Shown here: piece after piece, positions 5,946-63,947 of the stretch | Numbering within the stretch: the stretch's first letter is position 1 | Layout: each line of letters begins with the position of its first letter | Source: a virus | DNA length: 64,000 bases | Virus record (IMG/VR): IMGVR_UViG_3300009506_000001 | Location: 62,001-126,000 of that record | Strand: one strand, 5' to 3' | The notes under the pieces: model-generated | Databases searched by the model: none | Seen by the model: the letters and a program-made list of their open reading frames with translations, nothing else | Told to the model about the DNA's origin: nothing | Position numbers and translations under genes: made by a program

Positions 5946-6317
5946 ATGGCACTCTACAAAGGCTACAGCACATTTGAGTATGAACGCAATAAGTCGCTCA
6001 AAATCACTGACCTCGAACTGGTAAAGTTGGATATCCTGAACCAAATCTTTACCCGTAAAGGCGAGCGTGTTATGATGCCTAATTTTGGGTCAATAGTCCC
6101 TGATATTGTTTTTGAGCCGTTAGACGACGTAACTCTTGCAATTCTGGAAGAAGATTTGAATGCGGTGGTAAATTTTGATCCTCGTGTCGATCTGTTAGAA
6201 TTCAGTTTGCAGCCTGATTATGACAATAGTTTGGTCACGGTTCACATGAAATTACTTTTTGTCGAGTTCGATCTTGTAGACGATGTCGACCTGAATATAC
6301 TCTTTGAGGGTTCATAA
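5946..6317 (+). CDS. 25: Baseplate wedge protein gp25
   Basis: The 123-residue protein matches the gp25/IraD-type family, which is conserved from T4 to type VI secretion (TssE). Visible motifs are DLELVKLDILNQIFTRKGER and MMPNFGSIVPDIVFEPLDD, then a compact alpha/beta end. T4 gp25 is 132 residues. It acts in the wedge together with gp6, whose gene follows with a TAATG overlap. Confidence 0.9.
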   Translation: MALYKGYSTFEYERNKSLKITDLELVKLDILNQIFTRKGERVMMPNFGSIVPDIVFEPLDDVTLAILEEDLNAVVNFDPRVDLLEFSLQPDYDNSLVTVHMKLLFVEFDLVDDVDLNILFEGS

Positions 6318-9557: not shown

Positions 9558-12500
9558 GTGACCGACAATTCAGATTACACAAAGCCTAGAACCAATCTCT
9601 ATGACCTATTACCAGAAGTTTATAAATCTGGTGTCAATCGTAGTGTTCTAGAGGCATCCATTAACCGTTTCCTAACAAAGAGTCAGACAGACCGAGTTAT
9701 AGGATATATTGGGCAGGGTAATCCAAACGCTGCAATCAATCGTCAGATTGCGGAGCCAACTCCACAGCGTCAAGCATATCAGTTGCAACCAATGATCTAC
9801 AGCAAGATTGGCACTGTAGAACATATGGCATCCTTTAAAGACATTGAGAACGAATTAACACGCCTTGGTGTGGATCCGCTGCTAATGCAGGAGTGGGGTG
9901 ATGCACTTGCATTTAACTGGGCTCCCCCAATTGACTTTGATAAGCTAATCAACTACCGAAATTACTATTGGTACAATGAAGAAGACCCAACGGAAGATCC
10001 ACAGTACCTAACAATTCGTAGTGACTGTGTTCGTGCACAGGCAGCACTTGATGAATATAATCTTCTTCTTGATACAATTGGTGCTTTGCATGCAATAGTT
10101 GGTCTGGATGCAATGAATCACACTATCAGTATTGCAACAGACTTAACAGGTACATTTACGGAAGGTTTTATCTTCTATGTAAAGAATTCAACCAACAGCA
10201 CCATCAATGCTGAATTCTATACGGTTGTATCATCTGCGTACAATGCTGGTTCAGACGCAACAGTCATAACAGTTAATGTGAGTGGTTCACCTGTATTTGA
10301 TGATTCAATCATTGATGGTGATGTTTCGCTTGAAGAAGGTGTGAACATTTATGAAGCTGCACGGGACTGCTTCTGTGCTGGGGAAGTTGGTTGGTCTGGT
10401 GGGCTTTGGGATGATAACCAAGTTGGTACAGTGATATGGAATACACAGCTTATTCTAAGTATCAGCTATCCTAATGAGGCAGCTTGGTTGGCTGCTCACT
10501 GCCCGGGTTCACCAACGTGTCCAGAAGAAACAAATCTATGGTATGATACGAGTACAGATGAATTGAAGCAGTACAACGGCAGTGCATGGGTTGTTGTTCA
10601 GCGTAACTTTGGCAGTATCCTTGCAGTAACTACAGGTGGTAACACTTGGGATTACTCTAAGCAGTGTCACTTTGCATCCAATGATTGGATTACACAGAAC
10701 AAGTGGCTTCACCAAAACCAGGTACCTAACTTTTCAATTGCAAAGCAAGCTCAGATTCCTATTATTGAGTTTATTTCAACCATTGAGCTAAATGCGTGGA
10801 CAAAGATCACCTATATCTGGCAGTATCGTCCAGCATCAACGGAGCCTTGGGAAAGTGCGGCGGTTGCTCGTCCAAATCTTTTTGAGCTAATTGGTGTTGA
10901 TACTTATACGATTGATGTGGGTCTTCAAGAGATAGTGTTCGATGCTCGTTATGGTGATTTAACACCATTCCTTGAAGCTGGCACAGAAATTATTCTTGAT
11001 GGTACTACCGATAATGATGGCACATACACAATTGATTACTCGTTCTTCTGTGAAGAGGTAGCAGGACAAAAATATCAGACTCGAATTCGTTTAGTTGAAA
11101 CATTAACATCGACAACCGCTGATGGTATTATTACACCAGCATACACTTCACGTGGTGATGCATATGAAGGTGTGCATGTTCATTGGTCTTTTGTACAAGA
11201 GGACGAAGCCTTCCCAACCGTGTATATTCCGTTGAACCCAATGTTAGAACTTCCAACCAATCCTCCACTGCCAGCAGTAGCGGATACGTATTGGCAGTAT
11301 ACGCTAGGCTTATTTGCAGAGGAAATTCTTGCCACGACGAAGAGCCTTGGTACTCTAACTATTATAGGAGCCTCTTCGGGTTCCCCAACATATTGGGAGA
11401 TTGCAGGAGACCATACAGCAGCATTTTCCGATCCAAACCTAATCGGTGTTGGTGGAACTATAACTGTTAGTGGAAACCTGGGTGGTGGTAATACTGATTA
11501 CACTATAACAAGTGTATCGCTGGTTGGTGGAAATACTCGCATTGGTGTTGCAGGTTCGATTCCAGCAGCCGCAGTTGCAGCTACAACAAAGGGTGAGCTT
11601 TTTGCTCATTGGACATTCACTTTTGATTCATCGCTACGAGATGAAACATTAGAAGGTACAAACGACCTCCGTGTTTATATTGAGGATACTCGTCAGTATG
11701 GTAACTATGATGAGATCGCTGTTACAGGTTCGCCAACCCCCGATTGTTCATATGTGGGTGGAATCCTTATCCGTGCACCTCTAGAACAGTATCAGATGCT
11801 GCGTGTAGAGGTAGGTGCAGCCGCATGTTGTGATATTGGTTACAATTGGGTTGGTGTACGTACAAATACCGATGATGGTTCCTTTAACCCAGCCACCGAT
11901 CTTGAATGTGTCAGCTTGGTTCAGTTTAAGAAACTGGAACAGGTCAAGTCCGAAACAAACCAATATCCATTGTTTGACTTGTTTGATGTAGAAGGAAATC
12001 CTCTTAATGTTGCATCACGTATTTTTGCATTCCAAGAGTCGCAGTCCTATCCAGTCAATACACTTGTCAATAAGCGTATTGTTACAAGTAGTGATGGTCG
12101 AGATTATTACTTCGAGCAGTACCTAACACCAGAAGATAATGGTGTACTTTATGCCTACCGTGAAGCATCTAACTCTTTCTGGTATGACTCTGATAATGAA
12201 ATTTTGTATCAGTGGAAGAATGGTACTTGGAATCCAAAGATTGTTACAACAGATTTTAGTACTAGTTCTACAACTGCATGTTATGTTGCACCGGTTGTAA
12301 GTAATATGGTGCCAGGCTCACCATACATTGATGTTGATGGTATGCTTTGGTTTAATACTAACAACAATTCTGTATACGTTAGCGATGGTTCCAGTTGGAC
12401 ACTAAATTCACTGATAACTGCGGATGTTGTTATTAGTGATGCTGATCCAGGGCTAAACTCTATTTGGAGAACAGGACCAACAGATACAAGCTGTGCAGAT

Positions 12501-37054: not shown

Positions 37055-37387
37055 TTATTTTCCTGCCAAACGTCTGTTCATCCTTGTGACTAGTTTCGAC
37101 TGTTGTTGGTGCTTAGAGATTCTGGTCTTCATGACACGTACTCCCTTGCGAGCACGGTTGACTTTCTTACCATGACGACGTTTCTTAGGGTCCTTTCTTT
37201 TCGCACACGCTTGTGGTGTAGCGACTATTTTACCTTTTTTTGGACCAGAAGTGCAACGGAATTGACGCTTTATTTGTCCACCCACCCGTTTGAACTGACG
37301 AATAGCGGCTTCAGAAAGAATGTTACCCTCTTCGTCTAGGTATACTTCCTCGCAACATTCTTCACAAATGATTTCGAAAAGTTTCAT
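37055..37387 (-). CDS. Basic protein, possible processed internal head protein (110 aa)
   Basis: The N-terminal 26 residues are acidic and hydrophobic (MKLFEIICEECCEEVYLDEE) and end in LSE-A, a match to the T4 prohead protease consensus (L/I)xE-(A/G). The remaining 84 residues are strongly basic (KRKDPKKRRHGKKVNRARKG) and include two Cys that may bind metal. The layout, acidic propeptide, cleavage site, basic DNA-binding chain, is that of T4 internal proteins. This is an inference; no homologue was recognised. It lies in the late operon begun at 38851. Confidence 0.6.
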   Translation of the reverse strand: MKLFEIICEECCEEVYLDEEGNILSEAAIRQFKRVGGQIKRQFRCTSGPKKGKIVATPQACAKRKDPKKRRHGKKVNRARKGVRVMKTRISKHQQQSKLVTRMNRRLAGK

Positions 37388-37749
37388 GCTGGTACTCCTG
37401 TTGTTCCTGGTGTAGCGGCTCCCTGCTGTTGTCCCTGTGCTTTTGTCTGGGCAGTCAACGCTTGTTCTTTGCGAGCAAGGTCCATTTTCATTCTAGCGAT
37501 TCGCTCTTCCATCTTTTTGATCTGCAGGCGTTCCGTAGCTAATGGATCATTAGCCTTGTTGGCTTGGATTGCCTTTTCTTTATTCTGTAGGTCCTGCTGC
37601 TGAGCACGAATAGCACGTTGCGGTGATGCAGTTGCAACTTTTTGTGCTTTCTTTGCCTGAGCAACAACGTCGGCCGGCGACATCGTGGCAGGGTCAAAGG
37701 AGATGGTCTGCTCAAGCTCGGACAGATATTCTTTGAATGTCCTATCCAT
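37384..37749 (-). CDS. Hypothetical coiled-coil protein (121 aa)
   Basis: It begins MDRTFKEYLSELEQ, similar to capsid-targeting N-termini of T4 internal proteins. Residues about 45-100 form a long charged coiled coil (ERLQIKKMEERIARMKMDL). The tail is Gln/Gly/Thr-rich. It is co-transcribed with two other putative head-associated proteins and overlaps the next by ATGA. The function is unknown. Confidence 0.55.
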   Translation of the reverse strand: MDRTFKEYLSELEQTISFDPATMSPADVVAQAKKAQKVATASPQRAIRAQQQDLQNKEKAIQANKANDPLATERLQIKKMEERIARMKMDLARKEQALTAQTKAQGQQQGAATPGTTGVPA

Positions 37750-61260: not shown

Positions 61261-61818
61261 TTAAAAGGGTTCGAAACTGTCTTTAAATAGGTCAAGCAGT
61301 AGGGTCATTGTGTGTTCGTTTGTGGGTACTGTGATGAACTCCTGACCCAACTCTCTCAGGCTATTCTTAATAGCCTCATCGATCGCTTGTGACTCTTCCA
61401 AGTTGTGATCACGCCCATTTGTTTCAAAGTGAGTAGGACGTTCAAGGAAGATGTTGATGTTGTCGTAGGTGTCATTGACAGCTACAACAAAATCAAGGAA
61501 AGCATCAAGAGCAGGCCAAGGACTGACACCCCTTTGCTGTTCGTTCATCTTTGGATAGATGTAGGAGAACAAGATTGGACTATCTACGATTGCGTAGTCA
61601 ACATTGTTACGCAACCGACGGATTCGCTTCTGTTGTTCTACAAAGATGTCTTCTTGTTTGTCGAGCATCTCTTGAAGACGACCTTCCCAAACAAGTTCCT
61701 TTGCGTATTCTGTCACCAAATCGACACTCTGGTGACGCATTTTCATGAAGTAGAAAAGGCCTGCGGCAGTAGTGCTTTTACCTGATCCAGGCCCACCGAA
61801 CAAATTGATTACTTTCAC
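61261..61818 (-). CDS. NadR/AAA_28-type P-loop kinase or ATPase
   Basis: The 185-residue protein has a Walker A motif NLFGGPGSGKSTTAAGLFYF, then LVTEYAKELVWEGR, an Asp in AIVDSPILFSY, and a lid-like segment FLERPTHFETNGRDH. This pattern matches the AAA_28 family that includes the ribosylnicotinamide kinase domain of NadR. Kinase activity on nicotinamide riboside or another small substrate is possible but not shown. The GTG start overlaps the ClpP-like stop (GTGA). Confidence 0.7.
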   Translation of the reverse strand: MKVINLFGGPGSGKSTTAAGLFYFMKMRHQSVDLVTEYAKELVWEGRLQEMLDKQEDIFVEQQKRIRRLRNNVDYAIVDSPILFSYIYPKMNEQQRGVSPWPALDAFLDFVVAVNDTYDNINIFLERPTHFETNGRDHNLEESQAIDEAIKNSLRELGQEFITVPTNEHTMTLLLDLFKDSFEPF

Positions 61819-62510
61819 TTGGCAGCTTTCTTTTTAGATGCTCGCTTTTTCCTTGGCTGTGGTTGTTTAGCTGCTTCCTTTTCAGCCTCTTTGGCTTTCT
61901 GCTCTGCTTCGAGATGTTTCACAAACAACTGTAGTCGTTCACGAACCTCTGACGAAGTCATCCAGAAATCTTCACCAGCCAACATACGATTGATCTCTTC
62001 TTCCGTCATGAAACCCAAATACGTATCTCTAGCCAGTTCTGCATACCACCGAGCTGTTGCGGTTGCCGAAGCAAGATACTCATGGCCTTTGCCATAAGCA
62101 CCACCACTATGGTTGTGGATCATAAACAGACAGTGGTCATTAACTACCATTTCATCACCGTGAAGGAATAGTAGTGTACCTAAAGAGCATACCTCACCTT
62201 CCAGCACTGTGACAACATGGCCTTGGCTCATCTTCATCGCACTGATGATCTGAATGCCTGTGCTAATGTAACCACCAGGAGTGTTTAAGTAGATGTAGAT
62301 GACATCATGAGGACCAGCGGCCTTGATACGCTGAATCATCTCGACGTAATCTTTTGGAGCACCAATTGAATCGCTTATATAGAAGTGGTATTGTTTCCCT
62401 GCAAGAGGAGCCTCGTAGAATTGAACCGCAGGTTCTTTCTCTGAATCATCACCACCAGATTCGTATTCGTACTCTTCTTCCTCTGTCGCAACCTTCTTCG
62501 TTTTGCTCAT
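61815..62510 (-). CDS. ClpP-like serine protease
   Basis: The core (residues about 40-200) has the ClpP fold pattern: FYISDSIG, IYIYLNTPGGYISTGIQI, the nucleophile Ser in GEVCSLGTLLFLHG (S109), and His in FMIHNHSGGAYG (H132). It lacks the long ClpP handle features needed to judge oligomerisation. Both ends are charged: an acidic N-terminus and a Lys-rich tail (PRKKRASKKKAAK). It may act with host ClpX/A or alone. A T4 gp21-type protease is not the obvious assignment. Confidence 0.75.
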   Translation of the reverse strand: MSKTKKVATEEEEYEYESGGDDSEKEPAVQFYEAPLAGKQYHFYISDSIGAPKDYVEMIQRIKAAGPHDVIYIYLNTPGGYISTGIQIISAMKMSQGHVVTVLEGEVCSLGTLLFLHGDEMVVNDHCLFMIHNHSGGAYGKGHEYLASATATARWYAELARDTYLGFMTEEEINRMLAGEDFWMTSSEVRERLQLFVKHLEAEQKAKEAEKEAAKQPQPRKKRASKKKAAK

Positions 62511-62513
62511 GTT

Positions 62514-62672
62514 TTATTTTTCTTTGTGGAGCAGTTCTGCGACTTTTGCCTTAGCAACTAGAAATAGTTCTATGGCCTTAACCTGTAGTCTCTTTGCAAG
62601 CTCAGGCTGTGGGAAGTTCCAACCAACGTAGGCACCAACAACTACACCTACGGCAAGACTTAATACGGACAT
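62514..62672 (-). CDS. Small membrane protein (52 aa)
   Basis: It begins MSVLSLAVGVVVGAYVGWNF, a single membrane segment ending at PQPE, followed by an amphipathic helix (LAKRLQVKAIELFLVAKAK). AAGGGAG lies upstream. Similar MSVLSLAVGVVxG proteins are common in marine T4-like phages. The function is unknown. Confidence 0.7.
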   Translation of the reverse strand: MSVLSLAVGVVVGAYVGWNFPQPELAKRLQVKAIELFLVAKAKVAELLHKEK

Positions 62673-62703
62673 CTCACGTTCTCCCTTATTATTGTTATAA
62701 ATG

Positions 62704-62736
62704 GGAGCCTTTATTTGGTAACAAGGAAAAGGCTCC
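62704..62736 (-). terminator. Strong hairpin downstream of the tmRNA
   Basis: A 9-bp perfect stem (GGAGCCTTT and its complement) with a 15-base loop follows the tmRNA coding piece. It lacks a T run, so it may be a terminator, a processing site or the 3' boundary of the RNA. Confidence 0.55.
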
Positions 62737-62739
62737 TCT

Positions 62740-62970
62740 ATAAAACCCCGATGAGGCTTACGCTGCTAGGCGAAGGTCCTCATAGTAGTTGTCATCGTTT
62801 GCAACTAAAGTTTTGTGCTGGTTACGCCAGTCACCTCTCGGCTATCTCCTGTCCTCTTATTCGCCCCGTCGAATGCCGTGTCATCCCCAATAACTACTTG
62901 TTTTAGTGGAGAAGATGGGAGTCGAACCCATGTCCGCAACGCTTCCAATTTCTATCATCGATAGCAGTGG
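62740..62970 (-). ncRNA. ssrA: Permuted two-piece tmRNA (ssrA)
   Basis: Transcription order is acceptor piece first. Its T arm is ATGGG with loop TTCGACT and CCCAT (62915-62931), followed by the acceptor strand CTTCTCC and discriminator A (62907). An 18-base spacer follows, then the coding piece beginning GGGGATGA (62888), with CATTCGACGGGG. Acceptor pairing GGGGATG with CTTCTCC has one U-U mismatch. The resume codon GCA is at 62802; the tag is ANDDNYYEDLRLAA with stop TAA at 62758. GATAGC/GCTATC can form helix P2 between the pieces, and ATGAGG/CCTCAT a P5-like helix. CCA is not encoded. tmRNA rescues stalled ribosomes and tags proteins for proteolysis. Outer boundaries are approximate. Confidence 0.9.
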
Positions 62971-62978
62971 TATTTATT
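62971..62978 (-). promoter_or_regulatory. Late-type octamer (AATAAATA) before the tmRNA
   Basis: Minus-strand AATAAATA lies just upstream of the acceptor piece, so the RNA may also be made late. Confidence 0.4.
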
Positions 62979-62998
62979 GTCTAAATGCCACACCTCAG

Positions 62999-63027
62999 AT
63001 TATACTGAGAGACGCTTGATAAGACAA
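62999..63027 (-). promoter_or_regulatory. Sigma70 promoter for the tmRNA
   Basis: TTGTCT, 17 bases, TATAAT, with predicted +1 near 62992. It fits a dedicated promoter for the tmRNA precursor. Confidence 0.7.
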
Positions 63028-63458: not shown

Positions 63459-63947
63459 TTATTTGTTCCACTCGTCTTGCAGTTCCTCCTGATATTCCTC
63501 GACTGCATCGATTTCTTTGATGGTATCTCGGATGTCAGGGAGTTCTGCGATGTCCAAATCGCCAATGTCGTAAGACAATGTGATATGCGGTTTGTACTCG
63601 TCAAAATCATATGTAGCCTCGTGTTCATCCATGAGTTCTTTGTGACGCTTGTTCATTTCAGGGGCATCGAGCTTAACCACCAGGGCGTTCTTTTTGGACT
63701 GTGTTGGCCAGACTTCCATTTTGCCAACCTTGCATTTGATAGGCTTGTCCAGCTGACCCAATGCCTCATAATCGGGGCAAGGCTTTCTACTGTACAGAAG
63801 CGTTGTATGAACCTTTTCAGGGTCAAGTGGATTAGGAAGGTTGTTGTCTTTGGCATATTTGCTGAGCAGTGCTACGCCATCTTTGTCGTACTTGTATCCA
63901 GCGTATGTCCCTGCTTCCTTCTTTTCCATTAGTTCTTGTAACCTCAT
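63459..63947 (-). CDS. Acb1-like anti-CBASS 2H phosphoesterase (gp57B-like)
   Basis: The 162-residue protein has two H-x-T motifs of 2H phosphoesterases: VHTTLLYSRK (H47, T49) and YKPHITLSYD (H121, T123). The sequence around them (NPLDPEKVHTTLLYSRK, ATYDFDEYKPHITLSYDIGD) matches what I recall of the T4 57B/Acb1 family, which degrades cyclic nucleotide signals of the CBASS defence. T4 Acb1 has a similar length. The start MRLQELMEKKE adds a short N-terminal helix. The defence role follows from family knowledge only. Confidence 0.75.
   Translation of the reverse strand: MRLQELMEKKEAGTYAGYKYDKDGVALLSKYAKDNNLPNPLDPEKVHTTLLYSRKPCPDYEALGQLDKPIKCKVGKMEVWPTQSKKNALVVKLDAPEMNKRHKELMDEHEATYDFDEYKPHITLSYDIGDLDIAELPDIRDTIKEIDAVEEYQEELQDEWNK

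What the first reader, a model, noticed from the sequence alone, without database searches (positions are those of the whole stretch)
62740..63027. Phage-encoded permuted (two-piece) tmRNA with its own promoter
On the minus strand the T arm and acceptor 3' strand precede the GGGGATGA 5' end, the conserved CGACGGG segment, the GCA resume codon and a 14-residue tag (ANDDNYYEDLRLAA). This is the circularly permuted gene order otherwise known from alphaproteobacteria, some betaproteobacteria and cyanobacteria. Acceptor pairing, a P2-like pairing and a P5-like pairing are visible. A sigma70 promoter precedes it. A phage copy could keep ribosome rescue active after host RNA loss, retag proteins, or reflect host origin. 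The tag differs from the E. coli tag but keeps AND and LAA ends.
Basis: partly seen in the sequence, partly recalled or inferred. Interest (0 to 1): 0.85.

Follow-up and report, generated by a model that had tools for sequence, protein, structure and literature searches.

The report
Phage two-piece tmRNA beside ClpP protease
A large T4-like phage carries its own two-piece "ribosome rescue and tagging" RNA, a type already known from other phages; what appears not to have been described is that it sits just upstream of a phage ClpP protease gene, and that this pairing recurs in about two dozen related phages.

Summary
A permuted (two-piece) tmRNA gene lies on the minus strand: Rfam RF04321, 62966-62758, 114 bits, E=1.6e-21; whole gene about 62966-62698; tag ANDDNYYEDLRLAA. 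The record is a 155-kb T4-like myovirus. Phage-borne two-piece tmRNA is not new: a 2022 survey reported 53 such genes. (1) The next large gene downstream (61815-62510) is a ClpP-type protease with an intact Ser-His-Asp triad. Of 42 viral records encoding relatives of this ClpP, 32 have a permuted tmRNA, 31 of them 133-1156 bp upstream of clpP on the same strand; of 27 records with more distant ClpPs, none. No SmpB or ClpX was found. (2) The promoter conserved across relatives is the phage's own T4-type late promoter (TATAAATA/AATAAATA), not the sigma-70 site, which may act in addition. Best reading: a functional phage tmRNA that borrows host AlaRS, SmpB and ClpX/ClpA, expressed late, possibly together with a phage ClpP that helps destroy tagged proteins. 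Functional coupling to ClpP is inferred; the whole tmRNA-clpP-primase-topoisomerase block is syntenic, so shared descent could explain the adjacency.

The parts
62698..62966 (-). permuted (two-piece) tmRNA gene, approximate limits of the structured region
   Evidence: RF04321 62966-62758 E=1.6e-21; beta_tmRNA model 63012-62698 E=3e-21; ARAGORN
62907..62966 (-). acceptor piece: P2 5' strand, T arm (ATGGG TTCGACT CCCAT), acceptor 3' strand CTTCTCC, discriminator A, then CUA instead of CCA (limits approximate)
62888..62906 (-). spacer between the two pieces, presumably removed by processing (limits approximate)
   Evidence: processing inferred from known permuted tmRNAs
62698..62887 (-). coding piece: GGGGATG 5' acceptor strand (G3-U70 wobble), CGACGGG segment, tag frame, 3' stem GGAGCC...GGCTCC (limits approximate)
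62758..62802 (-). tag reading frame, resume codon GCA to stop TAA: ANDDNYYEDLRLAA*
62971..62978 (-). T4-type late promoter element AATAAATA (one mismatch to TATAAATA), conserved in position in relatives
62999..63027 (-). sigma-70-like site TTGTCT-17-TATAAT
   Evidence: conservation not shown
62514..62672 (-). orf52, 52-aa micro-protein with motif GWNFPQP; relatives at the same place in four other phages
61815..62510 (-). ClpP-type serine protease, 231 aa; triad S109, H132, D181 invariant in 29 phage sequences
   Evidence: PF00574 56.6 bits; phrog_1827 5e-60; AF2 pLDDT 88.7 and fold match to ClpP, best E=1.6e-11; alignments

Best explanation
This is a working phage tmRNA of the permuted, two-piece kind. 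It is transcribed late in infection from the phage's own ATAAATA-type promoter (and perhaps also from a host sigma-70 site), cut by host tRNA-processing enzymes into two pieces that pair through the acceptor stem and P2, charged with alanine by host AlaRS through the G3-U70 pair, and loaded onto stalled ribosomes by host SmpB. It frees ribosomes stalled on broken mRNAs and adds the tag ANDDNYYEDLRLAA, a typical ClpX/ClpA degron. The adjacent phage clpP, with no promoter-like site found between them, probably adds protease capacity for tagged and other proteins together with host ClpX or ClpA. Shown: gene, structure, tag, late-promoter motif, ClpP with intact triad, conserved adjacency, no detectable SmpB or ClpX. 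Inferred: transcription, processing, charging, tagging, and the functional tie to ClpP.
For: RF04321 E=1.6e-21. In 24 related phages the RNA is kept: the acceptor stem is 86% paired against 71.5% in partner shuffles (max 78%), the T stem 84.5% against 58.8%, and the third pair is G-U in 14 of 22. Tag interiors vary, yet 24 of 25 tags end in -AA. Permuted tmRNA in 32 of 42 records with related ClpP, 31 of them 133-1156 bp upstream on the same strand; 0 of 27 records with more distant ClpPs. No SmpB and no ClpX zinc domain. Late promoter: TATAAATA exact just upstream of 14 of 25 tmRNAs; in this phage 26 of 48 ATAAATA sites lie 10-50 nt upstream of ORF starts against 2.1% expected, the most enriched 7-mer. 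A separate T4 gp21-type prohead protease lies between portal and capsid genes (phrog_207 E=4.6e-59), so ClpP is probably not the capsid protease. In T4 infection host SsrA stays abundant while host tRNAs are degraded (PMC9697503), so ribosome rescue plausibly matters to this kind of phage.
Against: No expression data. The encoded 3' end is ACUA, so the CCA must be added after trimming (L073 and L084 also show ACTA, L047 and L050 ACAA). Folding energy is not better than shuffles. clpP, the primase gene and topoisomerase II form a syntenic block, so adjacency alone does not prove joint function. In about half of the relatives an ATAAATA site stands between tmRNA and clpP, allowing separate expression there. 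XacN1 carries both genes far apart, and RAS14 and CM1 have clpP but no RF04321 hit. In an unselected sample of 11 viral permuted tmRNAs only one had a related clpP in the DNA held.
Confidence: 0.7

Rival explanations
1. The tmRNA is functional for ribosome rescue only; it neighbours clpP through inherited gene order, and ClpP does something unrelated, such as turnover of host or phage proteins.
For: The tmRNA-clpP-primase-topoisomerase II block is syntenic as a whole. XacN1 has both genes, far apart. Most phage permuted tmRNAs sampled have no related clpP nearby. Several relatives have a late promoter between the two genes.
Against: Protein-coding genes upstream of clpP differ between relatives while the tmRNA stays; the tag is a degron of the kind that ClpXP degrades (established knowledge).
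Confidence: 0.4
2. The phage RNA acts as a competitor of host tmRNA, for example by binding SmpB, and so blocks or retunes host trans-translation rather than performing it.
For: No SmpB is encoded, so host SmpB would be titrated. The tRNA-like-domain-only tmRNA of phage DS6A has been linked to inhibition of tmRNA (PMC4131195 and PMC11915505).
Against: The tag frame, its stop codon and the terminal -AA are kept in relatives while the tag interior changes, which a pure decoy would not need.
Confidence: 0.1
3. A captured host gene that is decaying or neutral cargo.
For: Closest to the beta_tmRNA model; CCA not fully encoded.
Against: Kept at the same place in two dozen divergent phages with covarying stems, degron-like tags and a phage late promoter.
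Confidence: 0.05

Closest known systems
Permuted (two-piece) tmRNA, Rfam RF04321; nearest sub-model beta_tmRNA RF01850
   Same: Gene order, T arm, acceptor pairing, G3-U70, CGACGGG segment, tag starting AND and ending LAA, 3' stem of the coding piece
   Different: In a phage; below the curated threshold of the beta model (70.2 against 84); CUA instead of CCA; phage late promoter
Two-piece tmRNA of methylophage Melnitz and other marine phages (PMC9004378)
   Same: Phage-borne permuted tmRNA in a T4-like myophage
   Different: Melnitz: alphaproteobacterial type, reported under a glutamine riboswitch beside a transcription coactivator gene; here next to orf52 and clpP behind an ATAAATA late promoter
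tmRNA and SmpB of huge phages (PMC7162821)
   Same: Translation-rescue parts carried by large phages
   Different: No SmpB found here or in the relatives searched; that paper does not mention Clp
Phage ClpP (for example KVP40 clpP; jumbo-phage survey PMC7824862)
   Same: ClpP-fold serine protease in T4-like and jumbo phages
   Different: Those reports do not link ClpP to tmRNA; KVP40 has clpP but no RF04321 hit
Xanthomonas phage XacN1
   Same: Among the nearest cultured relatives by DNA polymerase (43.8%) and with a related ClpP (41.8%); carries a permuted tmRNA, unannotated in the record
   Different: Its tmRNA lies in a region present twice (37231 and 356026), far from clpP

Membership tests
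Permuted tmRNA (RF04321) | Covariance-model score above the gathering cut-off over the whole model | tested here: met
   114.2 against 47 bits, positions 1-213
Permuted tmRNA (RF04321) | T arm and 3' acceptor strand precede the 5' acceptor strand, which pair with each other | tested here: met
   6/7 acceptor pairs here; 86% against 71.5% in shuffles across relatives
Permuted tmRNA (RF04321) | Open tag frame with resume codon, stop and degron-like end | tested here: met
   ANDDNYYEDLRLAA*
Permuted tmRNA (RF04321) | G-U at the third acceptor pair (alanine identity) | tested here: met
   GGGGATG/CTTCTCC gives G3-U70; G-U in 14 of 22 phage tmRNAs
Permuted tmRNA (RF04321) | Precursor cleaved into two RNAs that stay paired | not testable with these tools
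   needs RNA from infected cells
Betaproteobacterial tmRNA (RF01850) | Score above the gathering cut-off | tested here: not met
   70.2 against 84 bits; relatives L011 and L008 do pass
ClpP protease (PF00574) | Domain score above the cut-off and ClpP fold | tested here: met
   56.6 against 20.2 bits; Foldseek to ClpP E about 1e-11, TM-score by target length about 0.7
ClpP protease (PF00574) | Ser-His-Asp catalytic triad | tested here: met
   S109, H132, D181 invariant in 29 sequences
ClpP protease (PF00574) | Tetradecamer working with ClpX or ClpA | not testable with these tools
   only a monomer was predicted
Phage prohead (capsid maturation) protease | Encoded in the head-gene cluster as the phage's only such protease | tested here: not met
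   a gp21-type protease sits between portal and capsid genes; clpP lies in the replication block
T4-type late gene | TATAAATA-type element just upstream | tested here: met
   AATAAATA at 62978-62971; motif statistics; gp55 homologue not identified

The most novel reading that the evidence does not exclude
A clade of large T4-like phages carries a dedicated tag-and-destroy module, a two-piece tmRNA plus its own ClpP peptidase (and in some a GWNxPQP micro-protein), switched on late, that plugs into host SmpB and host ClpX/ClpA to recycle stalled ribosomes and degrade tagged proteins under phage control.
Probability: 0.4. Interest if true: 0.7.

Novelty: new variant of a known kind. Interest (0 to 1): 0.5.

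Why it matters
Phage tmRNAs have been listed but their purpose is open. A conserved genetic pairing with the peptidase that destroys tmRNA-tagged proteins gives a concrete, testable hypothesis: some phages take over the whole rescue-and-degrade pathway late in infection, not just ribosome release. It also supplies about 25 natural tag and ClpP pairs, whose fit to each other and to host ClpX/ClpA can be assayed.

Tried and rejected
blastn of the tmRNA region and megablast of 24 kb against 50,697 phage records: no match. A first tmRNA DNA pattern was badly specified (its gap excluded the window's own gene) and gave 7 stretches, little use. Folding energy: not informative. 'ClpP is the prohead protease': rejected, a gp21-type protease is present. 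'ClpP-tmRNA pairing is general among viral permuted tmRNAs': rejected, 1 of 11 in an unselected sample. 'Adjacency is uniquely conserved': rejected, the primase and topoisomerase genes are in the same block. ClpP tree: adjacency is not one clade; at least 8 changes are forced by supported branches, and shuffled labels were as low in 139 of 500, so the tree shows no clustering and fits an old linkage with repeated loss or movement. Bacterial relatives of this ClpP, mostly Chromobacteriaceae, have no tmRNA nearby. gp55 late sigma factor: no ORF scanned matched one, in a partial scan.

Full report
What is there. The window is bases 62001-126000 of a 155,245-base virus record. The record carries T4-type portal, prohead protease and major head protein, baseplate wedge, DNA polymerase and topoisomerase II subunits, and a tail tube protein. 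Among cultured phages the nearest by DNA polymerase are Xanthomonas phage XacN1 (43.8%) and Stenotrophomonas phages CM1 and RAS14 (43.3%). The host is unknown.

The RNA. Rfam's tmRNA_permuted model matches 62966-62758 (-) over its full length with E=1.6e-21; ARAGORN agrees; the beta_tmRNA model extends the match to 62698 at a score below its cut-off. Reading 5' to 3' on the minus strand: P2 strand, T arm, acceptor 3' strand CTTCTCC followed by A-CUA, a short spacer, the 5' acceptor strand GGGGATG, the CGACGGG segment, then GCA AAC GAT GAC AAC TAC TAT GAG GAC CTT CGC CTA GCA GCG TAA, that is ANDDNYYEDLRLAA-stop, and a 3' stem GGAGCC...GGCTCC.

Selection on the RNA. Twenty-four further non-identical phage loci carry the gene. 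In the 22 sequences where both acceptor strands could be located automatically (the window included), they pair in 86% of positions against 71.5% when partners are shuffled between sequences (maximum of 2000 shuffles 78%); the T stem pairs in 84.5% against 58.8%. The anchoring step picks well-paired registers, which inflates the absolute percentages and may inflate the contrast, and related sequences are not independent, so this is support, not proof. The third acceptor pair is G-U in 14 of 22. Tags differ widely inside but 24 of 25 end in -AA (LAA, MAA, VAA, IAA); L057 ends AMVA. Tags for L048, L059 and L083 are less certain.

Promoter. The 7-mer ATAAATA occurs 48 times in the 153 kb of this phage examined and 26 of these lie 10-50 nt upstream of an ORF start on the same strand, against 2.1% of positions; no other 7-mer with at least 8 copies has a higher fraction. 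It precedes the 3016-aa virion protein gene (9522, ORF at 9558) and the ORF at 5946. This is the T4 late-promoter type (TATAAATA; established knowledge). The tmRNA has AATAAATA at 62978-62971, and exact TATAAATA stands just upstream of 14 of the 25 tmRNAs (18 of 25 with at most one mismatch; the one in L083 is at a doubtful position). So late expression is the best-supported inference. The sigma-70-like site at 63027-62999 may add early expression. No gp55 homologue was identified, in a partial scan.

Neighbour. Downstream, same strand: a 52-aa ORF with motif GWNFPQP (relatives at the same place in L040, L048, L060, L084), then a 231-aa ClpP. Its predicted structure (pLDDT 88.7) matches solved ClpP, including chains of a ClpXP complex bound to an ssrA-tagged substrate (6wr2), at E about 1e-11. 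Ser109, His132 and Asp181 are invariant in 29 phage sequences. No promoter-like site was found between tmRNA and clpP here, so one transcript is plausible.

How general. All eight first-found ClpP relatives had a permuted tmRNA upstream. In the wider set, 32 of 42 records have one, 31 of these 133-1156 bp upstream on the same strand and one (L068) about 86 kb away; of the ten without, four have less than 850 nt of upstream DNA in the contig. Removing near-identical copies leaves 24 adjacent, 1 distant and 6 without, plus the window. More distant ClpPs: 0 of 27. Whole-record searches found no SmpB and no ClpX zinc domain, with controls ringing in bacterial genomes; many records are fragments. 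Conversely, of 11 permuted tmRNAs from an unselected viral scan only one was next to a related ClpP (some loci were short), so the pairing is a trait of one phage group, not of phage tmRNAs in general. The block tmRNA-clpP-primase-(ORF)-topoisomerase II is syntenic, so vertical inheritance is a sufficient explanation of adjacency; joint function is a hypothesis.

Known or new. Phage two-piece tmRNAs were surveyed in 2022: 402 of 18,146 phage genomes encoded 133 unique tmRNAs, 53 of them two-piece (PMC9004378). Huge phages are reported to carry tmRNA and SmpB (PMC7162821). ClpP in jumbo phages is reported (PMC7824862). The literature searches (open-licence papers only) found no report of the tmRNA-clpP pairing; papers outside that library may hold one. 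The RNA itself is therefore a new member of a known kind; the paired arrangement with a late promoter is what earns 'new variant'.

Noticed in passing
window 63459-63947 (-): Acb1-type anti-CBASS phosphodiesterase (PF23474, E=1.5e-35), two genes upstream of the tmRNA.
   Followed up: no
window 62514-62672 (-); L040, L048, L060, L084: Conserved micro-protein family with motif GWN(F/I/L)PQP encoded just upstream of clpP.
   Followed up: partly
L005:6158-7006 (-) = G000:130158-131006: tRNA-His guanylyltransferase (Thg1-like) family gene, phrog_4717 E=1e-85: a possible tRNA 5'-end repair enzyme in a phage that also carries tRNAs and a tmRNA.
   Followed up: no
L006:5521-5599 (-): ARAGORN calls a tRNA with anticodon CUA ('tRNA-Pyl'); a possible amber suppressor tRNA.
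   Followed up: no
AP018399.1 (XacN1) 37231-37530 and 356026-356325: Permuted tmRNA present twice and without annotation at the copy looked at (37231).
   Followed up: partly
L240-L251, L253: Bacterial contigs, mostly Chromobacteriaceae such as Chromobacterium, Vogesella and Craterilacuibacter, encode a ClpP related to these phage proteins, without a tmRNA nearby: perhaps exchange between phage and host.
   Followed up: no
window and the rest of G000: ATAAATA is this phage's late-promoter motif, mapped genome-wide.
   Followed up: yes
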